Made by a program: the position numbers and the translations under genes. From contig DASYCE010000001.1 in NCBI GenBank assembly GCA_036500345.1, positions 1 to 64,000 on the forward strand: a stretch of 64,000 nt of DNA. Direction: 5' to 3'. Shown here one piece after another: positions 8,433 to 56,088 of this stretch; positions within the stretch are counted from its first letter, which is position 1; each line of letters starts with the position of its first letter. The notes beneath the pieces were generated by a model. The model worked only from the letters and a program-made list of their open reading frames with translations, was not told the DNA's origin and ran no database searches. Source of the stretch: Gemmatimonadales bacterium. Lineage in GTDB: Bacteria > Gemmatimonadota > Gemmatimonadetes > Gemmatimonadales > GWC2-71-9.

Positions 8433-9536
8433 TCAGGAAATCGACAGGACCGGATCGCCGAGCGCCGCCATCTTCGGGCGCACGCCGAGACCCGGTTCCC
8501 GCGACGCAGCGAGCCGCCCGTGCTGTCGGCGTGGCGCGCCATCGGCAAATGCCACCGTGACATACGAGTTGAAATCGGTCGCCGAGAAAAGGAAGCGTTC
8601 CGGCGTGCTGTGGGCGAGGTGGGCAATCGCCGCGGTGATGATGTCGCCGCCCCAGGTGTCCTCGATCGTCATCGCGATGCCGAGCGAGACGCAGAGGTCG
8701 CGAATCTGTCGCGCACGGGTCAGGCCGCCGACCTTGGAGATCTTGAGATTGATCACGTCCATCGCGCCGTCTGCGGCACCGCGCACCACCATGCCGATCC
8801 CGTCGATCACTTCGTCGAGGATGAAGGGACGATCGGTGTGGCGGCGCACCGCGAGACATTCCTCGTACGAAGTGCACGGCTGCTCGAGGTAGACATCGAC
8901 ATCGCGCACCGCGCCGGCGACGCGAATCGCCGCGTGCTGTGTCCATCCGGTATTCGCGTCGGCAATCAGGACGTCACCCGGTGCCAGTACTCCTGCCGCC
9001 GCACGAATCCGCTCGATATCGGTGTCGGGATCGCCGCCGACCTTGAGCTGAAACTTGGTGTATCCCTCGCTGCGGTACTGCGCGATGTGCTGCGCCATCA
9101 CGTCGGGAGGTTCCTGCGAGATCGCGCGGTACAGCGCGAAATCCTCGCCGGCGCGGCCGCCCATCAACGTCACTGCGGGGAGTCCGCAGGCATGACCGAG
9201 AATGTCCCAGCACGCCATGTCGATCGCCGACTTGACGTACGGGTGTCCGCGCATCGCGGCGTCCATCTGGTCGTTGAGGCGGGCGAGGTCGCACGGATCG
9301 GAGCCGATCAGCTGCGGCGCGAGTTCGGCGATCCCGGTCCGCGCACCGCGCGCATACGCCGGCAGATATGCCGGGCCGAGCGGACAGACTTCACCCCAGC
9401 CGGTGATGCCGGCATCGGTGTCGATCGCGACGACGGTCGAATCGAAGACCGTGACCGCGTTGCCGCCCGACCACTTGTAGCTCGCCTCGTGCAGCGGCAG
9501 GTCGATCTGATAGGCGCGAATGCCGGTAATTCGCAT
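8433..9536 (-). CDS. enolase-superfamily dehydratase/epimerase (MR/MLE type)
   Basis: A 367-residue enzyme of the mandelate racemase/muconate lactonizing group, which abstracts a proton alpha to a carboxylate using Mg2+. The KxK base motif lies in KFQLKVGG. Metal ligands follow in LIADANTGW (Asp), YLEQPC (Glu) and FILDEVIDG (Asp/Glu). The second Lys base is in [13 protein letters not shown], and EDTWGGDI follows near the C-terminus. The pattern recalls cis-3-hydroxy-L-proline dehydratase-like members, but substrate cannot be set from sequence. ATG 9536 shares one base with the stop of the upstream permease gene (TGATG), so a transporter-enzyme pair for a carboxylate or amino acid derivative is plausible. 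Confidence 0.85.
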
Positions 9537-10351
9537 CAGGCGACCGATGCGGCGTTGCGCGATGCGACCCAGAGCGTTGCCGACGTGTAGAGCAGCACCA
9601 CGACAACCACCCACTTCACCACGCTCAGGGGCAACTCCTTCACCAGGAACGCGGCGATGAAGACGCCGGGGATGCCGCCGATCGCGAGGCCGATCGCGGT
9701 GCGGCGATCGAATCGTCCGGCGCGAAAGAAGCGCAGCGCCGCGGCGGGGAGAATCAGCGACGCCGACGCAGCCATGATCGGGAAGACGGCCTTCTCGTTC
9801 ATGCCGAGCATGTAGGTCATCGCCATCGTGGGGGCGTAATTGCCGATACCGAGCGACGTGAGCGAGCCGATCACCACGCTGCCGATGATCGCGACCACAA
9901 GCGGGAGGCCGGTGAAGCCCGTGGTGCCTGCGGTGTGCGAAAGATTCAAGAGCATCCGGACCGCCATGAACGCCGCAGTGATCACCAGGGCGATGGCCAT
10001 GCCGCGCTGGATCGCGCGACGCGGCCAGTTCGCCACGATCCCGGCGCCGTACCACGCGCCGACCCCGCCGGCGAGTACCATCGTGACGATCGTCGGCAGG
10101 TCGATCAATCCGCCGAGGAGGATGATGAAGATCACCGCCTCCGTGATTGTCGGGATCGCATGACCGACATTCAGCGTGCCGGGGATATTCTCGTCCTCGA
10201 CGATTCGACCGAGGCGGAGAATTGCCGTCGTCGTGGCAAACGATCCGATCCCGAGCGTGTCGAAGAAGTCGGTGACGGTGCCGAGGAGGAACAGCCCCGC
10301 CATCGGGGTGGCGCGTTCACGGCTGGCCGTGGTCGACGGAATGGCAGACAT
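9536..10351 (-). CDS. TauE/SafE-family membrane permease
   Basis: A 271-residue inner-membrane protein with about 8 hydrophobic helices in two halves, as in TauE/SafE anion exporters. A signature early loop is [20 protein letters not shown], and [14 protein letters not shown] repeats it in the second half. Family members export sulfite, sulfoacetate or other organic anions; substrate here is unknown. Start ATG 10351 is preceded by AAGGGA. It is coupled by a one-base overlap to the enolase-superfamily gene, which suggests the permease moves that enzyme's substrate or product. Confidence 0.8.
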
Positions 10352-10441: not shown

Positions 10442-11971
<1,530 letters not shown>

Positions 11972-12013
11972 CGCTTCGCGGGGCACCATCCACTCCAGTG
12001 GGAGAATCGCATC

Positions 12014-44793: not shown

Positions 44794-45261
44794 ATGACGA
44801 CCGTATCCGTTTCCCTGGTTGATGTCTACGTCCTGCGCGGGCGCGGTGAGGAGCTCGAAGTGCTGCTCCTCCGGCGCGCACCGCGTGGCGTCCGTGCAGG
44901 CACCTGGGAAGGGGTGCATGGAAAGATCGATCCCGGCGAGTCGCCCGTCGACGCGGCGGTGCGCGAACTCCATGAAGAAACGGGGTGCCATCCGCTGGCG
45001 CTGTACAATCTCAGCCGCGTCGAGCAGTTCTATCTGCACACCGAGGACCGGGTTGCAATGATTCCCGTCTTCGTGGCGTTCCTTGCCGGCGACGCCGTCG
45101 TCCGCCTCAGCGACGAGCACGACACACTGCTCTGGATGAAGCCCGACCCGGCGCGCGAGCGCCTGACGTGGCCGCGCGCGCGCCGCGCGCTTGACGATGC
45201 GATCGCGTTGCTGGGCAGCGGCGGCGCGGGAATACTGGAGGAGGTCCTCCGCGTGCGTTAA
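44794..45261 (+). CDS. Nudix hydrolase
   Basis: A 155-residue Nudix enzyme hydrolysing nucleoside-diphosphate-linked substrates with Mg2+. The Nudix box is GKIDPGESPVDAAVREL followed by HEETGCHPL (GX5EX7REUXEEXGU). Similar proteins include NudB dihydroneopterin triphosphate pyrophosphatases, but the substrate is not clear. ATG 44794 was preferred over an in-frame TTG 21 bases upstream. It lies 45 bases after the GspE-REC gene, so co-transcription is possible. A C-terminal extension (GILEEVLRVR) follows the fold. Confidence 0.9.
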   Translation: MTTVSVSLVDVYVLRGRGEELEVLLLRRAPRGVRAGTWEGVHGKIDPGESPVDAAVRELHEETGCHPLALYNLSRVEQFYLHTEDRVAMIPVFVAFLAGDAVVRLSDEHDTLLWMKPDPARERLTWPRARRALDDAIALLGSGGAGILEEVLRVR

Positions 45262-45337
45262 AAAGATCCGTAAACAGAATATCTGATCCGTTCTCCCTTC
45301 ATTTGACAATTTGTTCGCCTTGCCGCATCCCAATTCT

Positions 45338-45348
45338 CACGTAACGTG
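45338..45348. promoter_or_regulatory. palindrome CACGTAACGTG upstream of propeller gene
   Basis: A perfect 5+1+5 inverted repeat lies 75 bases before the start of the propeller gene, in the longest AT-rich stretch of the area. A perfect TTGACA (45303-45308) lies upstream but no fitting -10 follows it. It may be an operator for a regulator of the 45424-47403 gene group. Confidence 0.3.
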
Positions 45349-45423
45349 CTATGACCTCCGGCGCCACACGATTCGGTGGTCGCCGTCGTCCGTGTGTATC
45401 GACAATCTTTCAGAGCGAGCCCG

Positions 45424-46509
45424 ATGCGAGCCATCTCCCCCAACTCCCTGGTGGTGTGCGCAGCCGCCGGCGCAGTGATCCTCTTCGCGGGAAACGCGCG
45501 CGCCCAGGTCGCGCTCGATCCACACTTCCCGCTGCACATCGCGAGCGCGTCCTTCCAGACCGACTCGGATCGCGTCGGCAACCTCCTCGACGGCGCCATT
45601 GGCCGCGATGGACGAATCTGCGCCGCGGATTTCAGCGAAAAGATGATTCACTGTCTCGTCCGCAATCCCGATCATTGGGTCGAAATCGGCCGCAATGGTG
45701 AAGGACCCGGCGAATTCCGCGCACCCTACCGCGTCGCCTTCACACCATCACAGGCGATGTGGGTGTGGGATTTCCAGTCTCAGCAATTATCGCATTTCGA
45801 TGCCGCCGGTCATTTCACCGGTCGCGCCGCCCTGCCGTACTTCTTCCGGCAGGTCGACAACATGGTCGCGCTGGGCGAGGATCGTGTGGTCTTCTGCGGT
45901 GTGACTTCGATTGCCTCTCCTGCCCGCGACAGCGCGCTCCATCTCTTCAAGTGGGTCGGCAGCGGCACTCCGATGCAGTTGGTCCGCGCCTTCGGCCGGC
46001 TCCCGGCGTATTCCGTCCGTGAAAAGATCGACCATTGGGGCGCTGGCGTCGTCACCGTCGCGGCCAACGGCAATCTCTACTACACCCGCCGCGTTCCCTG
46101 GGACATCTCGGAGTTTCGTCTCGATGGCACGCTGGTGCGAGTGATTCCGGGGCCCGAGACGCTGATCATGGGTGCCGATTCGGCGGTGTCGATCACCGAA
46201 GACAAGGAGACCGTGACCATTCGGCGGAACCCGGATGCGACGATCGTGTACCCGCTCCGCGCGATCGATATCGGCCAGAACTGGATCCTCACCGGGCGGC
46301 GGATCGCGACTCCCAAGGAAGCGCATGTCGTCTGGGACCTGCTCGACCGCCGCACCGGACGCCGGATCGCCGAGACGCCGCTCCCCAAGCCGCTCACCGA
46401 GATCTCCGGGTTCGGCTACGACGCGACGCGCAATACCCTGTGGGCGTCAGGCTCCAGGGATGATGTCGACGGCATCTGGTCGGTCACGTTTGCCCGAACT
46501 CCGCAGTAA
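45424..46509 (+). CDS. secreted 6-bladed beta-propeller protein
   Basis: A 361-residue exported protein. ATG 45424 opens a signal peptide ending GNARA|QVALDP; upstream in-frame residues are not signal-like. The propeller has GRDGRICAADFSEKMIHCLV, IGRNGEGPGEFRAPYRVAF (the GxGPGE motif), FFRQVDNMVALGEDRVVFCG and GVVTVAANGNLYYTRRVPWD. Cys residues lie at blade edges. It is a paralogue in style of the gene at 25627. Two small Cys-rich secreted proteins follow 31 and 435 bases downstream, in an arrangement that recalls Bacteroidota propellers paired with small exported peptides. Confidence 0.78.
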   Translation: MRAISPNSLVVCAAAGAVILFAGNARAQVALDPHFPLHIASASFQTDSDRVGNLLDGAIGRDGRICAADFSEKMIHCLVRNPDHWVEIGRNGEGPGEFRAPYRVAFTPSQAMWVWDFQSQQLSHFDAAGHFTGRAALPYFFRQVDNMVALGEDRVVFCGVTSIASPARDSALHLFKWVGSGTPMQLVRAFGRLPAYSVREKIDHWGAGVVTVAANGNLYYTRRVPWDISEFRLDGTLVRVIPGPETLIMGADSAVSITEDKETVTIRRNPDATIVYPLRAIDIGQNWILTGRRIATPKEAHVVWDLLDRRTGRRIAETPLPKPLTEISGFGYDATRNTLWASGSRDDVDGIWSVTFARTPQ

Positions 46510-46540
46510 ACCACACACCCCCAACCCAAGGAGTCGATCC

Positions 46541-46948
46541 ATGATCGCACGCATCGCCGCCGCACTGGCGGTCCTCGTTCCCTGCGCGCTCGGAGCGCAG
46601 ACAATAGCGCCGGGCCGGATGCAGCCCCTGATGCAGAGCAATCTCTGCAACTTCGGCTGCGCAACCTTCCAGATGGGTGACAACGGTCCGAAGTTCGACG
46701 GCTGCCAGGAGAACACGGGCACCGATACCACGTTCAAGGCATGCACGTCGAACACCGACGCCGGCTGCTCGCTCAGCAATTGTCATGTCGCGACGCTGAC
46801 CATGTCCGATGGCGTGGTCCTCGCCGCGGCACCCGCCTGCCAGCTCGATCACGCCGTTGCAGTTGCGCTGCAGACCTCGCGCTCCGCCGGTGGCGACCCT
46901 GATTGGTCCGTCACCGTTTCCACCACCTTTGCCAGGAGAACGCAATGA
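46541..46948 (+). CDS. small secreted Cys-rich protein
   Basis: A 135-residue exported protein. AAGGAG at 46528-46533 fixes ATG 46541; the signal peptide ends ALGA|QTIAPG. Mature Cys residues fall in NLCNFGCATF, FDGCQEN, KACTSN, AGCSLSNCHV and PACQLDH, so about eight could form disulphides. The fold is not recognised. Its stop overlaps the ATG of the next small Cys-rich gene by 4 bases, so both are probably made in fixed ratio. Perhaps a ligand, an inhibitor or a substrate of the upstream propeller. Confidence 0.7.
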   Translation: MIARIAAALAVLVPCALGAQTIAPGRMQPLMQSNLCNFGCATFQMGDNGPKFDGCQENTGTDTTFKACTSNTDAGCSLSNCHVATLTMSDGVVLAAAPACQLDHAVAVALQTSRSAGGDPDWSVTVSTTFARRTQ

Positions 46949-47403
46949 AGAAGTTCGCAGTCGCCCTCGCTGCAGTCGCGTGCCTGACCGTCGCGCTCGG
47001 TCCCCGCACCCTGCAAGCCCAGGTTCGAGCAGGGGGTGCCGCCCCGCAGATGATGACGCCGGTCGTGTGCACCTGGCACTGCTACTGGAGCACCGGCTCC
47101 GACGGGAGTGCGTCGGGGTATGCCTGCTACGAGGCGTTTGACGGCGTCCAGCAGTTCGAAGGCTGCGCCGCCGACGGGATCTGGCGCGAACCATACGGAT
47201 GCGCCATGAAGCTCTGCGGTGAGGACGAAGCGGTCCTCGGCCCCGATGGGTCGCACGTCGGCGAGGCACGACTCTGCGACAACGCCCCCGAGTCGGCGCG
47301 CCGGTTGGTGACCGCCGCCAGTCTCCACAAGGCGCAGCAGAGCGAAAGCTTCGGACCGGCGTATATCGGGAGAGATGACGCGACGGCGAAGGGAATGCAG
47401 TAG
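46945..47403 (+). CDS. small secreted Cys-rich protein
   Basis: A 152-residue exported protein. GGAG at 46934 precedes ATG 46945. The signal peptide ends TLQA|QVRAGG. Cys occur in VVCTWHCYW, YACYEAF, EGCAADG, YGCAMKLCG and ARLCDN, spaced differently from the previous gene, though both have CxxC-like pairs after the N-terminal region. No family was recognised. It is the last gene of the propeller group, which ends at a hairpin before the convergent kinase gene. Confidence 0.7.
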   Translation: MKKFAVALAAVACLTVALGPRTLQAQVRAGGAAPQMMTPVVCTWHCYWSTGSDGSASGYACYEAFDGVQQFEGCAADGIWREPYGCAMKLCGEDEAVLGPDGSHVGEARLCDNAPESARRLVTAASLHKAQQSESFGPAYIGRDDATAKGMQ

Positions 47404-47416
47404 CTCCAGTGACGTG

Positions 47417-47450
47417 ACGAGGGCATCCCTGTCACGAGGTATGCCCTCGT
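47417..47450. terminator. hairpin between convergent genes
   Basis: ACGAGGGCAT (47417-47426) pairs perfectly with ATGCCCTCGT (47441-47450) across a 14-base loop, in the 58-base gap between the Cys-rich gene and the convergent kinase gene. There is no T-run on either side, so it may be a weak bidirectional terminator. Confidence 0.5.
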
Positions 47451-47461
47451 ACCGTCCGCGC

Positions 47462-49066
47462 TCAATCCTTCTTTTCGAGCGCCGCCAGTCGTGCCTCGAG
47501 TTCAGCGAGCCGGTCAACCTGGGCGGCCGGCGCCGGCGCAATGGCGGATGGTGCAGCGGTCGCGGCGGGCACCGCAGCCGCTGCCGGCACTGCACGCGCG
47601 GGCGTCGTGGTGCGCGGGACATTCCGCGCGGCGAGGCGGACGAATCCTCGTCCGAGCGGACCGAGCCAGACCGTTTCAAAGATCCGGTCACCGGGTGGCG
47701 CGCGGAACGGACTGCGAAGCAGCAACATCATTCCCACGCCAAACCAGATCACCGCCACGACCAACGCGATCAATCCCAGGAGGCCGACGTGGTAGCGCGC
47801 CGGCCCGGCCTTGACTGCGCTCCTCGCAACCACCACAACGAGAACGACCGCCGTCACGACCATCACCGACGCGATCCGCAGCGTCTTCTTCCGGTGCGCC
47901 AGCACTGCCGGATTGGCGCGATACGCTTCCCGCACCACCAGACGTTCCTCGGCGACCGCGCGCATCCCCTTGAGGATGTCGTCGGCGCTGTAACCGTCGG
48001 CCGCAAGGCGGCGCGCCGAGGAGAAGCTCATCATCGCACGGGTGATGATCACCGCGGTGATGAGCAGGACCGGGATTGCGGCGTCGAAGAGTCCGCCAGC
48101 CGACATTCCTCGCGCGATGAGCGGGAACATGATCAGAAGGAAGAACGCGACCAGTGACAGCGTGCCGAGATCCTGCGCGAACAGGCGGATCGGGAGCGGG
48201 ATTTCCGGCGCGGCGAGCTGGGCGGCGTCGATCGCGTCGACCAGCGCTTCGGCGGTGCGGAACCGGGCGTCCGGCGCCTTGGCGACGCAGCGATCGATTG
48301 AGTCACCGAGCGCCGCGGGGATCCCGCTGCGAAGCGTCGACGCCGGCGGCAGCACCTCGGTGAGCTGCTTGACGATGATCTGCTGCGTCGACGTCCCGGT
48401 GATCGGCTTCGTGCCGGTCAGCGCAAACAGCGCCACCAGGCCGAGCGAATAGAGATCGGTGCGGCCGTCGACCGTGTCGCCGGACGCCTGCTCGGGGCTC
48501 ATGAATTCCGGCGTGCCGACAACCTCGCCGACGCGGGTGAGCCCCGGCGCGGCGGCGGTCGACGTGATCGGTCGCGAGATTCCGAAGTCCATCAGCAGGG
48601 CGCGGCCGGTGGCGCGCTCGATCATGATGTTGTCGGGCTTGATGTCGCGATGCACCACCCCCCGGCCGTGCGCGTAGGCGAGAGCGTATCCGATGTCCTG
48701 CAGCACCCGCACGATCGTCCGGATATCCAGCGGTCCGGCACGCTTCACCCGCTCGGCGAGCGATTCACCCTCGACGTACCCCATCGCGAAGGCGAGGAGC
48801 CCGTCGCGGTCCTCGACGGCGTAGACCGGAACGATGTTGGGATGCGAGAACGACGCGGCGACCCGGGTTTCGCGGAGAAAGCGTTCGCGAAGTGACGGAT
48901 CAGCGGCGAACTCGGGCGGCAGGACCTTGAGCGCGACCGGGCGGTCGAGCTGCACGTCGCGTGCGAGGTAGACCGCGCCCATCCCGCCGCGACCGAGTTC
49001 GCGGTCGACGGCATAGCGGTCGCCCAAGCGGGCGCGGACCTGGTCGAGGGTGCTGGTGGCTGGCAT
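47462..49066 (-). CDS. Hanks-type serine/threonine kinase, membrane-bound
   Basis: A 534-residue kinase. The N-terminal kinase domain (about 17-275) has GRGGMGAVYLA (P-loop), the VALKV Lys, HRDIKPDN (catalytic loop), DFGISRP and GTPEFMSPEQASGDTV. Four TM helices follow at about 300-475 (LVAFFLLIMFPLIARGM, IPVLLITAVIITRAM, VMVVTAVVLVVVVARS, LIALVVAVIWFGVGMML). The C-terminus is an Ala/Pro linker and a coiled coil (VDRLAELEARLAALEKK). There is no PASTA or other sensor domain outside the membrane, so signals probably come through the membrane segment or the coiled coil. Confidence 0.94.
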   Translation of the reverse strand: MPATSTLDQVRARLGDRYAVDRELGRGGMGAVYLARDVQLDRPVALKVLPPEFAADPSLRERFLRETRVAASFSHPNIVPVYAVEDRDGLLAFAMGYVEGESLAERVKRAGPLDIRTIVRVLQDIGYALAYAHGRGVVHRDIKPDNIMIERATGRALLMDFGISRPITSTAAAPGLTRVGEVVGTPEFMSPEQASGDTVDGRTDLYSLGLVALFALTGTKPITGTSTQQIIVKQLTEVLPPASTLRSGIPAALGDSIDRCVAKAPDARFRTAEALVDAIDAAQLAAPEIPLPIRLFAQDLGTLSLVAFFLLIMFPLIARGMSAGGLFDAAIPVLLITAVIITRAMMSFSSARRLAADGYSADDILKGMRAVAEERLVVREAYRANPAVLAHRKKTLRIASVMVVTAVVLVVVVARSAVKAGPARYHVGLLGLIALVVAVIWFGVGMMLLLRSPFRAPPGDRIFETVWLGPLGRGFVRLAARNVPRTTTPARAVPAAAAVPAATAAPSAIAPAPAAQVDRLAELEARLAALEKKD

Positions 49067-49139
49067 CAGGAGGCCGAAATCGACAGCGGCGCGCGGAGGG
49101 GCGCAAGGTGGCAGAGCGAGCCGACTGTTCTCGACGATT

Positions 49140-49775
49140 CTAGTCCGGCTGGTACGGCCAAGCCCAGACCGGTTGATCGTCGTCGGCGCCGCAGCGATCG
49201 AGATGCCCGATGCGCTGCAGGGCGTCCATGCGGGCGTCGGCTTCTTCGTAGCGCTGGTAGCGAATTGCGTGAACCGTATTCCGGCGACTCAATGGCATCG
49301 ATGAGAGCGGCGGTGACGGCAGAATGTCAGAGGCGGGCTTCCGGGTGTCTGGACCGGTCGGCGGATCGCCGTAGGGATAGGTGATCGGAGCTTGCGGGCG
49401 ACGCCAACTGGCGGATCGTGACCGCTGCGGCTGGCCCCATTCAGGAAGTCCGGGACCAGCCGCGCGACGAATTACTGGCGGCGGATGATGTTGGGCATGC
49501 TGAATAACAGCGTCAGCTGGATCCGCGGTCGGGCGTGGTCGAGAGATCGCCCCTCCCGACGCGATGCCGAGTGACTCGCACAGGGTGGTGACCTCGCGAA
49601 GGAGTCGCTCAAGCGTCACGGAGTCACGCTGTGCGGCTGCCCGAGCCGCTTCCCGAAGCAGGGCGGCGCGCAGGCGTATGGCGTGTTTCGTGGCTGGCAA
49701 CTGCTCGAGCAGGTGCTCGATTGCAGCGCGTTGGTCATTGATCGAATGTTCGTCTGGTGGTTTTGACGTGTTCAT
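49140..49775 (-). CDS. hypothetical cytosolic protein downstream of RHS locus
   Basis: A 211-residue protein with no recognised domain. ATG 49775 has GGAG upstream. The first 85 residues are two or three helices (SINDQRAAIEHLLEQLPATK, RLRAALLREAARAAAQRDSV, LERLLREVTTLCESLGIAS). The rest is Pro/Arg/His-rich and looks disordered, ending in HAIRYQRYEEADARMDALQR. It lies on the same strand, 218 bases beyond the small membrane protein of the RHS locus. A role there is unproved. Confidence 0.55.
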   Translation of the reverse strand: MNTSKPPDEHSINDQRAAIEHLLEQLPATKHAIRLRAALLREAARAAAQRDSVTLERLLREVTTLCESLGIASGGAISRPRPTADPADAVIQHAQHHPPPVIRRAAGPGLPEWGQPQRSRSASWRRPQAPITYPYGDPPTGPDTRKPASDILPSPPLSSMPLSRRNTVHAIRYQRYEEADARMDALQRIGHLDRCGADDDQPVWAWPYQPD

Positions 49776-49993
49776 GTGTCTGTCTCCTGCACTTGGCAGG
49801 GCGCCGAAATGCTCACCTATGATGAATCTGCCTGGTGCCCAATCTGATCCGTAGGATTCAACAAGATCCTTCGTCACTCGATTCGAATTCCCTGTGTCAG
49901 CTCGTGGTGCAGGATGGCCAGTTCGCGTCGGTCGCGGAGTTGCCGCCGAACCCCGAACTGCAGGCCGACGGCAACTCTTCGCCTCGCGATGCA
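49776..49993. other. 218-base gap in RHS locus with no gene seen
   Basis: Between the hypothetical gene and the small membrane-protein gene no supported gene was found. Short overlapping frames exist but none has a good start, codon use or family match. The stretch likely holds the promoter of the gene at 49775 and the end of the RHS transcript. Confidence 0.4.
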
Positions 49994-50290
49994 TCATCGA
50001 TGTGGCTCGCCGAGGTCGAAGATCCAATAGATCCAAGCAAATGGCGCATTTAGCAGCGCTAAGGCAATCCCCAAAATGAAAGAGCGCGGCTTACTTCGAT
50101 ACCAATCGACAAACGCGAGCCACCACGACCACAGCGAGCACACGACACCGACTAACCCGATCGATGCGATCGCGTATTGTGCTTGTGTCGGCAGGCTTTG
50201 CCACTGATTACTCGAAAGACGAATTGCGCAGTAGCCGACCAGGGAGGCAACCATCCCTAGAATGGCGATGCGTTTTCCACTGTGGATCAT
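49994..50290 (-). CDS. small membrane protein, candidate immunity protein
   Basis: A 98-residue protein with three hydrophobic helices (RIAILGMVASLVGYCAIRL, IASIGLVGVVCSLWSWWLAF, ILGIALALLNAPFAWIYWIF). ATG 50290 overlaps the stop of the RHS gene by 4 bases, so it is translated with it. In polymorphic RHS toxin loci the gene right after the toxin usually encodes its immunity protein; a membrane protein suggests protection against a membrane-active toxin. GC of 50041-50280 is low here (131 of 240 by hand count), in line with a mobile cassette tip. No family match is known to me. Confidence 0.6.
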   Translation of the reverse strand: MIHSGKRIAILGMVASLVGYCAIRLSSNQWQSLPTQAQYAIASIGLVGVVCSLWSWWLAFVDWYRSKPRSFILGIALALLNAPFAWIYWIFDLGEPHR

Positions 50291-53200
50291 GGTAGAGTGC
50301 TCCGAATCAGTGTTTGAGCTTGATGGACAGCGCGAGCTGCGACTGCCCGAAGCGCAGTCCAATTGATTGTCACGTCGAAGCCAAGCCCGACGGCTACGCC
50401 AATTGTCGTGCTCTTGCCATGCAACTGCTCTCGATGCTCGGCACCCAAGTCCTGACTCCCTGCGCGGAGCGCTCCCGTCAACTCGGGCGACTTCGCCAAA
50501 TCCAACTTTACGCCGCCCCTCTGTCCGACAACCTCCGCGCCGAACTCGATCTTCGGCGAGCCGCTGCTGACCGTCAATTCGGCGGGGTATTTTGCAGAGA
50601 GGTCAATCGAAGCCACGCCCCCAACCGAGCCTTCGGCATAGGCTCCGACTAATCCGCTCGATATCGAGATTCCTCCCTGAAATCCTGCGGAGACCGTTCC
50701 GGTCAAGATGTCTCCGACGGTACAGGCCGAACTGTCGCGTGGCGGGCACAGGCCAAACGGATCTGTGAAGCTGTTGGGGTCATTCCCGTTGTACTGATAG
50801 AGGTTACCTCCGCCCGCGATTCCCGCGTGATCCTCCTGCAGCCACGTCCCAGTCGCCGGATCATACTGCCGCGTGCGGAAGCTGGAGATGTTCGCCGTGG
50901 AGTCAATCGCTACCCGCCGCGGATCAAAGGTCTGCGCCCGGGTGGTGATCCCCGACGTGGCCCATGTGCCGGGGGCGTACGATTGTGGTCCTTCGTACGT
51001 TGTGTTGAATGCCCCGATCGAGTCACCAATTGCCAGCAACTGGCCGAGGCCATCCGAGACCAGGAAGAGCTGCGCCTGCTGCACATTGCCGGTAATCCGC
51101 CGTACGGCGCTGAGCGGCTCGTCGAGCCCAGGCGCCGGGACATAGGTCCAGAAGTTGTCGGGATCACGGACGACGTTGTCGCCCAGGAACACGACCGGCC
51201 CGCGGCCGCACGGCTCGAAGGTGCGGCCGTCGGGATCGTAGCCGCAGGTGTTGGGCGCGGTGAAGAAGTCATGCCCTTCACCGGCCATTCGGCCTGCACC
51301 ATCGTACTGGTACTCGTAAACGTCCGCCGCCACGGTGTGGACCGCGTCCTGAAGGTAGTCAGCCCACCGGCTGCCATCGGCAAGGTATTCATAGTGGCGG
51401 ACCGACGTGCCCAGTGACGATACCGTCACCTGGCTGTCCACCCGATTGCTGTTGGCCGGAAAAATGTTGGTAATCACCTGCGTAATTCCGCCGAGATGAA
51501 TCTGCTTGGTGCGATTCCCCGACGGATCGTATGTGAAGCTGTCGGTCGTCGTGATCGAACCGCTGCGGCCGGTGAGGGTCTGGACCGCGATCGCCCCGGT
51601 CCGGAAGTACCGGGTGATCGCTTCGCTCGGCAGCCAGTCGCCGCACGGGTCGCCCGGCATCGAGTCGGCGAAGAACGCGCCGTCGCGGCAGCTCATCGTC
51701 TGATGCAGCGGGCGCCCCATGGCGTCCACGCTATCCTGCGCCATCGTGAAGTAGAAGCGGTTCGGGATGAGCGATCCCGTGTCTCGAGATACCAGCTCCC
51801 GCAGCACGCCCAGACGGTCGTAGTGCGACGTCACGTTGAGCTGCGCTGTGGTATCGAACGGATAGACGATCGTCTGCCGACGGCCGAGCTGGTCCCAGGT
51901 GAACTCGTACAGTTGCCGCTGCACGCTGTCGCTGTTCACCAGCTTCGCCACCAAGGTATCGAGATCACCTGTGCTCTTGTACACATAGTGCCAGATGTCG
52001 CCGACGCGCCAGAGGAGCGAGTCGACGCGCCCGCCGGCATCGTAGTGAGTGCGCACCGAATCCGCCGCAAGCGCTCGCACTCCGGTGAGCGCGGTGTTCG
52101 GATGAATGGCTTCGGTGTGAACGTCGCCGTTCTGGAAGTAGCTGCGGGTAATATCCCCGCGAGTGCTTCGGTGAACGAGCAGGTTCCCGACAGCATCATA
52201 CGCGCTGGTGACCGTGTCGGCGGGTGTCTCATAGAATTCGCCGAACATGACAATACTGTCGATCGGCATCGTCCAACGGGTTTCGCGACCGAGTGAGTCA
52301 TAGCTGAACGTCAAGACTTGCCCCTTGCGCGTCTTCCGGCTGGTCATCAAGCCGCGGCTATCGTAGAAATTCGAGTCTGCGACGCCCTGCTCGTCGATGT
52401 CGGCGATCAGCAGGCCTCGCGGATCGTACCGGTATTTGTGGGAGACGTTCCTGTAGTCATCCACCTCACTCAGCAATCCGTTCGTGTAGAAGCGCTTCGT
52501 ATACACTGGATCGAACGCGAGGTTGTTGAGGATATTGTTATCGTTGCAGACGAACTCGCTGGAGAGGCACCCGGCCGCCGTGGAATCCGTCGCACCATTT
52601 GAGGCCATCAGGGTATCACGATCCATCGAGTCGTAGAAGTAGGACAGCCGGTAGTGCAGCGGGTTGCTGGATGAGGTGATCCGGCCGGCGGCGTCGTAGT
52701 AGTACAGCGTCGCGCCGCCGGCAGGATTCTTGACCTCGACTGGGTTTCCCGTGCTGTTGTAATTGATGGTCGTCACGAGGTCAGTGTCACGGTCGGCGGT
52801 GAGACTCTGGATCCATGTCGTCACGCTCCGATCGGTCACGCTGGTGATCTGTCCGCGGACGGAATCGTCCGAGCTGGCATAGCCGAACACCGTGTGATGG
52901 CTCCGCGGGTCGATCACCGAGTCGGTCAGACCGAGCGAGTTATAGAAATACTTGGTGACGAGCCCCGATGGATCGGTGACCTGGCTTGGCGAGAACAGAT
53001 CGTTGGCGTCGCCATAAAGCCACGAAGTGGTACGTGGCGACAGCCCATCGGTCGTGCTGTCCTGCAGGGAGGTCAGATTGGCGTTGGCGTCATAACCCAG
53101 ATTCAGACGGCGGCCATTCGGGTAGAGAATCCGTGTCGGCATCGCCGGCACCGCCGAGTTCGCACGACTATACGTCGTTATCGATCCGTAGGCGTCGCGT

Positions 53201-55041
53201 TCCACGATCGGGGCGCCCCACTTGTCGACGTGAAATATCGACGTGAACCCCTCGCCACTCGGCGGCCCGTCAATGGTCGTGACGGCCGTTGAGGTATCCG
53301 CGGGAGTCTGGCCGACGTATCCGGCGGCCTGCCACGGCGCAAACGTCGTCACCGCGGTCTTCGCGTTTGTGGCAGTCCCGTAGAGAACCTTCGCTGAATC
53401 GACCAACCCGTTGGAAGCATAATGCAGGACAGTCGTGTCTCCTTGAGGACTGATAGCCCTGCCTATCCGGCCACCGGTCGTCGAGTCGAACGAGAATGCT
53501 GTTCCGTCGGGCCAATGCCAGAGTGTCATCTTGCCGCCGCTTGTCGACACGGCCACATCACGTCCGCCGACGCGCACGCTATCGAGGAAGCCCGAGCCAT
53601 TGTAGTGCATCACGAATGTCCTACCGCCAGACCCGGCGGGTGGCACGTGGACACTGTCGAGCTGGGTTGCGCTCCGCCAGAAGAAAGTGGTGACCTGCGT
53701 TTGCCGATTGCTGGTGCGGATATGTCGTCCGGTGCTATCGAAGACGACCTGGATTCCGTGCGGAAGGGTTCGCGTGTATTGGCCGCTCGCAAGCTTGATC
53801 GTGTCCTTGAAAGCTTCCGACGGCGCGATCCATGTCGTGCTGTTGATTTGATGATAGAACTTGCTCGATCCATCACCATCGACCCACAAGATTTGCGACT
53901 GTCCGGTTCCTACCGGCTGATGAAGCACCAAGCGCTCCACGCCAAGCCACTCCCAGCCGGCACCGTAGTTCCCGGTGCTTCGGTTCACGACTTGTAGAAG
54001 GCCGTTGACCGAACTCCCCATCGAGTCACTGCCCGCCACCGCGTAGACGGTGAGCGTGTAGGAATAAGCCCCCGTGGGCGCCGAACCCGCGTTCCAACCC
54101 AGCACTAGCTGCCGAATGCCGCCGGCACTCCACGGCGAATAGGTCGCAGTTGTACGGACGGTGTCGTGGACGGAGAGCACGGCCGTAATCCGCGTGAGTG
54201 TCGGTTCGCCCGGATCGAGTGACACGTTCGCGGCAACGAGTGGCTGAGGCGCAGCGGTAGCGGACGCATACGTCAGTGTCATCCGCCGAGTGCGATCGAG
54301 CGTGGTGTACCCTGGCGTGCTCAGCATCAGCAGGGCGTCGCCGCATGACCAGTCTGCGACTCCCGCCGAACTCGTCAGACAATGTGCCCGGTTGAAGACC
54401 GAATCGTTCTGCCGCGGTTGAGTCAGCGTCGGAGCGATCGGCGACACGATGTTGACATCGTACCAGCCGGAGTCTGACACGATACCGGTCATGTGCAGGA
54501 CGACTTGCCCCGAGCCGCTGGTTCCGGTCACCGAGTAGCCAACAGTGACGTCGGTACTCGCGAGCGGATCGAGGGTGATGTTGTCGTCCGGTGTCGTCCC
54601 GCAGCTGGTGACGACGCCGGTCCCATCGCAGGAGGGCGTGTACGTAGTGGTAAAGCCGCGGTTGTTGGTGACGGTGAAGGTGACCTCGCCGCCCCCGTTC
54701 GCCGAAACGCCCACTGGCCCGCCATCCTTTGGCTCGACGTCAACCGACCCCGATGCCGGCGGTGGCGGCGTCCGGCGGATCGGGACCTGAGCGGCGCCTG
54801 CCGTGAGATGTGCCGCCATGGCGAGTGCGCCAGTGCAGAGCGCACCGACGACTCGCCTCCAAAGGTGGGCACCGTTCCGGCGCCGATGGAGCGCGCCAGA
54901 ACGGCGGTCCCGGTCCTCAGGGGGAGAGGTCCGGGGGGACTGCGTCCAGCCTGGGAATGGCCGGGGTGGGTGGTGGAGCGCCGCCGCCGGATAGGCGACG
55001 GTCAAGGCGGCGCCGGACGGCGCCAAAACGGGATGCTTCAT
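50287..55041 (-). CDS. RHS/YD-repeat protein with variable C-terminal domain
   Basis: A 1584-residue exported protein. Start ATG 55041 follows GAGG. The N-terminus is unusual: about 70 Arg/Pro-rich residues precede a hydrophobic stretch (VVGALCTGALAMAAHLTAGA) with likely cleavage before QVPIRR. Residues 95-350 are beta-rich Ig/CARDB-like modules. From about 360 to 1420 there are many YD repeats (YDPRGLLIADIDEQGVADSN, YDSLGRETRW, YDPSGNRTKQ), closing in the RHS core end YDPATGTWLQEDHAGIAGGG and LYQYNGNDPNSFTDPFGL. The last 160 residues form a distinct Gly/Ala/Ser-rich beta domain (GGISISSGLVGAYAEGSVGG). RHS shells cage such C-terminal toxin domains. No peptidase or nuclease motif is seen in the tip. 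Confidence 0.9.
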   Translation of the reverse strand: MKHPVLAPSGAALTVAYPAAALHHPPRPFPGWTQSPRTSPPEDRDRRSGALHRRRNGAHLWRRVVGALCTGALAMAAHLTAGAAQVPIRRTPPPPASGSVDVEPKDGGPVGVSANGGGEVTFTVTNNRGFTTTYTPSCDGTGVVTSCGTTPDDNITLDPLASTDVTVGYSVTGTSGSGQVVLHMTGIVSDSGWYDVNIVSPIAPTLTQPRQNDSVFNRAHCLTSSAGVADWSCGDALLMLSTPGYTTLDRTRRMTLTYASATAAPQPLVAANVSLDPGEPTLTRITAVLSVHDTVRTTATYSPWSAGGIRQLVLGWNAGSAPTGAYSYTLTVYAVAGSDSMGSSVNGLLQVVNRSTGNYGAGWEWLGVERLVLHQPVGTGQSQILWVDGDGSSKFYHQINSTTWIAPSEAFKDTIKLASGQYTRTLPHGIQVVFDSTGRHIRTSNRQTQVTTFFWRSATQLDSVHVPPAGSGGRTFVMHYNGSGFLDSVRVGGRDVAVSTSGGKMTLWHWPDGTAFSFDSTTGGRIGRAISPQGDTTVLHYASNGLVDSAKVLYGTATNAKTAVTTFAPWQAAGYVGQTPADTSTAVTTIDGPPSGEGFTSIFHVDKWGAPIVERDAYGSITTYSRANSAVPAMPTRILYPNGRRLNLGYDANANLTSLQDSTTDGLSPRTTSWLYGDANDLFSPSQVTDPSGLVTKYFYNSLGLTDSVIDPRSHHTVFGYASSDDSVRGQITSVTDRSVTTWIQSLTADRDTDLVTTINYNSTGNPVEVKNPAGGATLYYYDAAGRITSSSNPLHYRLSYFYDSMDRDTLMASNGATDSTAAGCLSSEFVCNDNNILNNLAFDPVYTKRFYTNGLLSEVDDYRNVSHKYRYDPRGLLIADIDEQGVADSNFYDSRGLMTSRKTRKGQVLTFSYDSLGRETRWTMPIDSIVMFGEFYETPADTVTSAYDAVGNLLVHRSTRGDITRSYFQNGDVHTEAIHPNTALTGVRALAADSVRTHYDAGGRVDSLLWRVGDIWHYVYKSTGDLDTLVAKLVNSDSVQRQLYEFTWDQLGRRQTIVYPFDTTAQLNVTSHYDRLGVLRELVSRDTGSLIPNRFYFTMAQDSVDAMGRPLHQTMSCRDGAFFADSMPGDPCGDWLPSEAITRYFRTGAIAVQTLTGRSGSITTTDSFTYDPSGNRTKQIHLGGITQVITNIFPANSNRVDSQVTVSSLGTSVRHYEYLADGSRWADYLQDAVHTVAADVYEYQYDGAGRMAGEGHDFFTAPNTCGYDPDGRTFEPCGRGPVVFLGDNVVRDPDNFWTYVPAPGLDEPLSAVRRITGNVQQAQLFLVSDGLGQLLAIGDSIGAFNTTYEGPQSYAPGTWATSGITTRAQTFDPRRVAIDSTANISSFRTRQYDPATGTWLQEDHAGIAGGGNLYQYNGNDPNSFTDPFGLCPPRDSSACTVGDILTGTVSAGFQGGISISSGLVGAYAEGSVGGVASIDLSAKYPAELTVSSGSPKIEFGAEVVGQRGGVKLDLAKSPELTGALRAGSQDLGAEHREQLHGKSTTIGVAVGLGFDVTINWTALRAVAARAVHQAQTLIRSTLP

Positions 55042-55163
55042 CTGGACAACCTCGGTCAGGGGGTAACCGAATAAAAACCGAAACAACGGACCAGATTTAC
55101 GCGCTTCCTGACCCCCTGTCAACCCGCCCGAAAGTTCCACGATTCATCGGTCCCAAAACGTCA

Positions 55164-55189
55164 AGAACCCGGCATTTCTGCCGGGTTCT
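55164..55189 (-). terminator. intrinsic terminator of the acyltransferase operon
   Basis: AGAACCCGGCA (55164-55174) and TGCCGGGTTCT (55179-55189) form a perfect 11-bp stem with a TTTC loop. On the minus strand it is followed by TTGACGTTTT, a T-rich tail. It should end the tig-clpP-clpX-engB-acyltransferase transcript before the RHS gene. Confidence 0.8.
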
Positions 55190-55242
55190 CCCATTCGCAG
55201 CGCATCTTCAGCGCGCGACTCGACGCCGCTGCCTGACTCCCC

Positions 55243-56088
55243 TCAGCTCTCCCGCTTCCGATCCGGATCCCGGTGCGTCTGGAACACCTCCGCCGGCGCA
55301 TTCGGCTTCACCCGGATCGATTTGGCCGGAATCCCCACGTGCACGTGGTACGGCCGCACATCCTTCGTCGCCAGCGCTGACGCGCCTACCATCCCGTTGC
55401 GCCCCACGCGAACACCCGCGAGCACCGTCGCGTGGTACGTCACCCGCACATCATCCTCCAGCACCGTCCGGATCGACGTCACATCCTTCTGCTCCACGAT
55501 GCTGTGCGTGTGCGAGTAGATGTTGGCGTAATCCGAAATCGAGACGCGATTCCCCAGCGTGATCCCGCCGCGATCGTCCAGCAGGACGTGCCGGTGCACC
55601 ACGACGTCGTCGCCGACCTCGAGCTGATAGCCGAACGAGAACTCGACGTGCTGGAAGCATTTGAAATTCGTCCCGACGCGCGCAAAGAGCAGCGGCGCCA
55701 GGATCCGCCGGAATTCGACGCCCAGGTCGACATTCTGCCCGCCGCACGGGAGGCGATCGAACGAATACCAGAGCCAGAGAATCGGCTTGACTCGCGCAAA
55801 CTTCTCCGCATCGACATCGCCGTAGTACTCCGGCTCCAGCGTGATGTTGCGCGGATCGCACGCTGCGACCGCGATCCGCATCGCAGCCGGAAGCGTCGCA
55901 TCGTCGGCGCGCTCCTCCCACCCGCCCTGTCCGGGATAGGCGAGCTCGAAGATCGTGTCGCGGGCGATGACGTTCCAGTCGGCGCCCGGCGCGTTGAGCC
56001 GCTGGTCGAGATCGGAGAGCCACGCGTCACGGAGTGCGCGCGCCTGGTCCGGAATGTCGACCTGCTTGAGCGGGAGCATGACCATCAA
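55243..56088 (-). CDS. hexapeptide-repeat acyltransferase (left-handed beta-helix)
   Basis: A 281-residue acyltransferase-like protein. Residues 1-125 are a helical and mixed domain (DIPDQARALRDAWLSDLDQR). Residues 130-260 have hexapeptide turns of a left-handed beta-helix (VGDDVVVHRHVLLDDRGGIT, LGNRVSISDYANIYSHTHSI, VLEDDVRVTYHATVLAGVRV). The catalytic-type His is in SHTHS. Its closest style is maltose/galactoside O-acetyltransferase-like enzymes; the acceptor is unknown, and surface sugar or lipid modification is possible. ATG 56088 overlaps the stop of the preceding secreted protein by 4 bases; a terminator follows at 55164. Confidence 0.85.
   Translation of the reverse strand: MMVMLPLKQVDIPDQARALRDAWLSDLDQRLNAPGADWNVIARDTIFELAYPGQGGWEERADDATLPAAMRIAVAACDPRNITLEPEYYGDVDAEKFARVKPILWLWYSFDRLPCGGQNVDLGVEFRRILAPLLFARVGTNFKCFQHVEFSFGYQLEVGDDVVVHRHVLLDDRGGITLGNRVSISDYANIYSHTHSIVEQKDVTSIRTVLEDDVRVTYHATVLAGVRVGRNGMVGASALATKDVRPYHVHVGIPAKSIRVKPNAPAEVFQTHRDPDRKRES

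What the first reader, a model, noticed from the sequence alone, without database searches (positions are those of the whole stretch)
49994..55041. RHS protein with unknown C-terminal tip and overlapping membrane protein
The 1584-residue YD-repeat protein ends in a RHS core (about residue 1420) followed by 160 residues of Gly/Ser-rich beta sequence matching no toxin family I know. A 98-residue, three-helix membrane protein overlaps the stop by 4 bases and sits in a lower-GC stretch. That layout is typical for toxin-immunity pairs, but both tip and partner look new, and a membrane partner suggests a pore-forming or envelope-active tip.
Basis: partly seen in the sequence, partly recalled or inferred. 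Interest (0 to 1): 0.65.

Follow-up and report, generated by a model that had tools for sequence, protein, structure and literature searches.

The report
RHS toxin tip with membrane immunity
A large bacterial secreted protein ends in a swappable, previously undescribed poison-like tip, and the small membrane protein encoded right after it is most likely the antidote; this is a new pair in a well-known kind of bacterial weapon.

Summary
A YD-repeat/RHS ORF (window 55041 or 55140 to 50287, minus strand) ends its core at DPFGL. It then carries a 153-residue Gly/Ser-rich tip with no match in Pfam, NCBIfam, PADLOC or PDB sequences. A 98-aa protein with three TM helices follows, overlapping by ATGA.

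The toxin-immunity reading is well supported. (1) In the only other congener with this RHS protein, DNA similarity stops exactly at the core/tip boundary, and that genome has two different tip/partner cassettes. (2) RHS homologues across the family carry different tips. (3) Two RHS proteins in other families of the class carry homologues of this tip (shuffle z about 10). One is followed by an ATGA-overlapping 99-aa three-TM protein, the other by a decayed copy of that gene. (4) The island is absent from the same site in a congener.

The killing mechanism is not shown. The tip has no TM helix and no glycine zipper, and its structure could not be predicted (pLDDT 33). An inner-membrane-active tip is the most likely guess, drawn from the membrane partner.

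Verdict: a new tip and immunity family within the known RHS polymorphic toxin kind. The genome lacks a T6SS sheath gene; the export route is unknown.

The parts
50287..55140 (-). RHS/YD-repeat protein, 1617 aa from GTG (1584 aa from ATG 55041)
54787..54867 (-). Sec-type signal-peptide-like stretch HLWRRVVGALCTGALAMAAHLTAGAAQ (true start codon uncertain; no PAAR or MIX domain found upstream)
   Evidence: sequence read directly; no N-terminal Pfam domain
50749..50904 (-). RHS-associated core / C-plug, TIGR03696
50761..50832 (-). Asp1437 (DHAG) and Asp1460 (DPFG), spacing DXXG-X19-DPXG as in Tse5; predicted self-cleavage after DPFGL
   Evidence: motif and cleavage in Tse5 from PMC10684867
50290..50748 (-). 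C-terminal tip, 153 aa, predicted beta-rich with a C-terminal helix (low confidence); putative toxin
49994..50290 (-). 98-aa three-TM protein, putative immunity protein, ATGA overlap with RHS
49140..49781 (-). 213-aa accessory ORF of unknown function, found only beside RHS cassettes in this genus
45259..55245 (.). about 10-kb island at a variable site; the site is empty in congener G006

Best explanation
This is an RHS polymorphic toxin cassette. The protein is probably exported through Sec (inferred). Its YD-repeat shell encloses the last 153 residues and cuts them free after DPFGL with the conserved pair of Asp residues (inferred from the motif). The released tip acts on or through the inner membrane of a competing bacterium, most likely by perturbing it (inferred, about 45%). 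The overlapping 98-aa three-TM protein sits in the producer's inner membrane and neutralises the tip (pairing supported by co-occurrence; neutralisation inferred). Tip and partner are exchanged as a cassette behind a conserved core (shown by comparison).
For: Nucleotide similarity between the window and the G006 RHS ends at window 50750, in the last codon of DPFGL. G006 carries a different tip plus an orphan core stub (83% identical to its own main core) with a third tip and a lipoprotein partner. RHS relatives in the family have different tips, several with an ATGA- or near-overlapping partner gene. Tip homologues lie behind RHS cores in G256 and G247 (Smith-Waterman z 10.0 and 10.2, 0 of 2000 shuffles reach them; four unrelated RHS tips give z 0.5-2.0). 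In G256 the tip is followed by a 99-aa three-TM protein with ATGA overlap. A profile of the two small proteins, searched on its own, then led to the G247 locus with its tip homologue and a decayed partner. The protease Asp pair has the Tse5 spacing. The literature states that immunity to channel-forming effectors is in almost all cases a polytopic membrane protein (PMC12744356).
Against: The window's 98-aa protein resembles the other partners only weakly (z about 3.4; 12-18 of 2000 shuffles reach it), so homology rests partly on position, length and topology. The first protease motif reads DHAG instead of DPxG. The tip family was found in only 3 of 394 class genomes, and the first E-value (0.002 per genome) was not convincing alone. 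There is no TM helix in the tip and no usable structure. Toxicity is untested.
Confidence: 0.8

Rival explanations
1. The tip is a toxin, but not a membrane one: it enters the cytoplasm or acts in the periplasm on peptidoglycan or another target, and the membrane partner blocks its entry or binds it at the membrane face.
For: Sister cassettes in the congener look periplasm-directed: an M15/VanY-like tip (weak, E 0.05, below cut-off) with a lipoprotein partner. The tip has no TM helix.
Against: No enzyme family, and the columns invariant in all three tips are mostly Gly outside the core end. A membrane-embedded partner is more usual for membrane-active toxins (PMC12744356).
Confidence: 0.35
2. 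The tip is a harmless structural end of a surface YD-repeat protein (adhesin or wall protein), and the small membrane protein is an unrelated neighbour.
For: No toxin family match; Gly/Ser-rich beta sequence; some YD-repeat proteins are not toxins (general knowledge).
Against: The tip is replaced wholesale in the congener, with the break exactly at DPFGL; the tip and a three-TM partner recur together at distant RHS loci.
Confidence: 0.1
3. The tip is a degraded remnant and the 98-aa ORF is chance.
For: Low GC3; weak similarity of the small protein; a degraded relative exists in G247.
Against: Both frames are intact; the partner recurs at the same length and overlap; three clean TM helices.
Confidence: 0.05

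Closest known systems
Tse5/Tsi5 of Pseudomonas aeruginosa (RHS pore-forming effector with membrane immunity)
   Same: RHS shell, DXXG-X19-DPXG protease pair, C-terminal toxin of about 150 aa, small membrane partner (two TM in Tsi5)
   Different: Tse5 is exported by T6SS with a PAAR-like N-terminus, and its tip is predicted alpha-helical with TM segments. Here there is a Sec-like N-terminus, no T6SS sheath gene in the genome, a probably beta-rich tip without TM helix, and a three-TM partner.
RHS/YD polymorphic toxin systems with orphan cassettes (Zhang et al. 2012, PMC3482391)
   Same: Conserved core, swapped tips, adjacent partner genes, orphan core stub plus tip in the congener
   Different: Neither tip nor partner matches a family in the libraries searched.
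CDI ionophore toxins and two-TM CdiI (PMC11630599)
   Same: Small hydrophobic membrane immunity of 72-100 aa
   Different: CdiA delivery and a five-helix bundle toxin; no resemblance to a beta-rich tip.
Cdz glycine-zipper bacteriocin with three-TM CdzI (PMC5380434)
   Same: Gly-rich toxin and a small three-TM immunity protein
   Different: The tip shows no excess of glycine zippers over shuffles; [quoted passage not shown]
PLDc_N hairpin (PF13396)
   Same: Two partner relatives score weakly against this membrane domain (E 3e-4 and 3e-3)
   Different: Both are below the gathering cut-off, and the window protein itself does not match.

Membership tests
RHS polymorphic toxin | YD repeats and RHS-associated core | tested here: met
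   above curated cut-offs
RHS polymorphic toxin | DPxG-X18/19-DPxG aspartyl protease motif before the tip | tested here: met
   Asp1437 and Asp1460 with X19 spacing; the first motif departs (DHAG)
RHS polymorphic toxin | Tip varies between related loci while the core is conserved | tested here: met
RHS polymorphic toxin | Tip followed immediately by a partner gene that travels with it | tested here: met
   G256 pair intact, G247 pair decayed; similarity of the window partner to these is weak
RHS polymorphic toxin | Tip is toxic and partner neutralises it | not testable with these tools
   needs expression assays
T6SS RHS effector (Tse5/RhsA type) | T6SS in the genome and PAAR-type N-terminus | tested here: not met
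   no VipB (T6SS sheath) match in a 96%-complete genome, while the E. coli control is found; no N-terminal PAAR
Alpha-helical pore-forming tip (Tse5-CT, CDI ionophore) | Predicted TM helices in the tip | tested here: not met
   no 19-residue hydropathy window above 1.3 in any of the three tips
Glycine-zipper toxin | Extended GxxxGxxxG | tested here: not met
   no excess over shuffles
Beta-barrel pore former | Amphipathic beta strands forming a barrel | tested here: inconclusive
   beta moment raised in G256 and G247 tips (P about 0.03), not in the window tip (P 0.43); model unusable

The most novel reading that the evidence does not exclude
The tip is a beta-type membrane-inserting toxin carried by a Sec-exported RHS shell and countered by a three-TM protein. 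The one RHS-borne membrane toxin whose papers were read here (Tse5) is thought to be alpha-helical.
Probability: 0.2. Interest if true: 0.6.

Novelty: new member of a known kind. Interest (0 to 1): 0.38.

Why it matters
It adds a tip and immunity family that the curated libraries searched here do not hold. It also shows RHS cassette exchange at work in a lineage without a T6SS sheath gene, where how RHS toxins leave the cell is unknown. If the tip is membrane-active without helices, it would widen the set of mechanisms known for RHS toxins.

Tried and rejected
Family searches of tip and partner gave nothing above cut-off. PDB sequence search: no meaningful match (the designed-repeat-protein hits are artefacts of summed repeats). 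AF2 of the tip with two sequences: pLDDT 33, so not used for fold search. Fold search of the partner model: no E below 1. The genome-contig hit L022 (Rhodospirillales) is a spurious antisense frame. Apart from L005, the weak tip hits in the phylum (L006-L013) and in the G256 family (L051-L055) look like chance. The plasmid hit on a fimbrial usher (E 0.3) and the Pfam MspA hit of the G247 tip (E 0.04) are both to beta-barrel membrane proteins, but too weak to use. No viral contigs relative. Glycine zipper tested and rejected. T6SS delivery tested and not supported.

Full report
Observation. The core is called by RHS_repeat and Rhs_assc_core above their cut-offs and ends at DPFGL, residue 1464 of 1617. 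Tip and small ORF have lower GC3 (0.64 and 0.61) than the RHS core (0.77) or the neighbouring clpX, clpP and acyltransferase genes (0.84-0.89).

Cassette exchange. Of nine congeners only G006 has this RHS protein (54% identity). DNA similarity with the window stops at window 50750, in the last codon of DPFGL. G006 has an unrelated tip there, plus a downstream orphan core stub, 83% identical to its own main core, that carries a third tip (weak M15/VanY resemblance, E about 0.05, below cut-off) and a lipoprotein-like partner. Across the family, RHS relatives end in different tips, several followed by ATGA-overlapping or close genes, and G288 has two neighbouring RHS matches with the same core end and different tips. 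This is the pattern of RHS polymorphic toxins.

The tip family. A phylum-wide search found one full-length relative behind an RHS core in another family (G256, 28% identity over 139 aa, E 0.002 per genome). That E-value alone is weak, and the other hits at similar E-values look like chance. Two independent lines raise it. First, the G256 tip is followed by a 99-aa three-TM protein with the same ATGA overlap. Second, a profile of the two small proteins, searched on its own, hit G247, where the gene upstream of the decayed small ORF is an RHS protein whose tip matches the window tip. Shuffle tests give z 10.0 (G256) and 10.2 (G247) for the tips, against 0.5-2.0 for four unrelated RHS tips. The G247 tip stops early and its partner is frameshifted; an intact orphan partner lies elsewhere in G247 and another in G341. 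The three non-window partners are plainly related to each other (z 13-25). The window partner resembles them weakly (z about 3.4), so its membership rests on similarity plus position, length and topology.

Anatomy and likely mechanism. The Asp pair of the RHS self-cleavage site is present with the Tse5 spacing (X19), though the first motif reads DHAG; cleavage after DPFGL is inferred. A Sec-type signal peptide is read near residues 92-118, no PAAR or MIX domain is found, and the 96%-complete genome has no match to the T6SS sheath family VipB. Delivery is therefore probably not by T6SS; how the protein leaves the cell is unknown. The tip has no TM helix and no glycine zipper. AF2 gave pLDDT 33 with strands and one C-terminal helix, which is only a hint. 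Beta amphipathicity is raised in the two relatives but not in the window tip. The partner is a three-helix membrane protein (pLDDT 68). Because immunity to channel-forming effectors is in almost all cases a polytopic membrane protein (PMC12744356), inner-membrane action is my best guess at about 45%. A periplasmic or entry-blocked toxin is the main rival.

Surroundings. The stretch of about 10 kb at 45.26-55.24 kb behaves as an insertion: in G006 the flanking genes lie about 50 bp apart, in G001 about 1.5 kb apart, and in G009 other genes follow the acyltransferase. A 213-aa ORF at 49140-49781 occurs only in the two RHS-bearing genomes of the genus among 102 family genomes, once after each tip/partner cassette seen (the order in G006); its role is unknown.

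Membership and novelty. It meets the testable features of RHS polymorphic toxins, fails those of T6SS RHS effectors and of helical or glycine-zipper pore formers, and is inconclusive for a beta-barrel pore former. It is a new tip and partner within a known kind.

Noticed in passing
window 49140-49781 (-); L023 about 9277-10000 and 11450-11995 (+): A 213-aa ORF with a helical-looking N-terminus and a conserved SASWRRPxAPIxYPxxDPPTG-like stretch follows each tip/partner cassette in this genus and is found nowhere else in 102 family genomes.
   Followed up: partly
L023 10317-11478 (G006:C47): Orphan RHS core stub with a weakly M15/VanY-like tip and an adjacent lipoprotein-like gene: a possible peptidoglycan-targeting cassette.
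   Followed up: partly
window 45259-55245: Variable insertion site between a NUDIX-like gene and an acyltransferase: empty in G006, 1.5 kb in G001, different genes in G009.
   Followed up: partly
L059 (G247:C481) and L060 (G341:C121): Intact orphan relatives of the partner protein without an RHS gene in the fetched stretch, as expected of stand-alone immunity genes; the G341 one lies beside toxin-antitoxin-like genes.
   Followed up: partly
window 50821-50832: The first protease motif reads DHAG where relatives have DPIG or DPLG; it may affect self-cleavage.
   Followed up: no
L027, L042, L047 (G288): A genome with three RHS matches, two of them neighbours with the same core end and different tips.
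   Followed up: no
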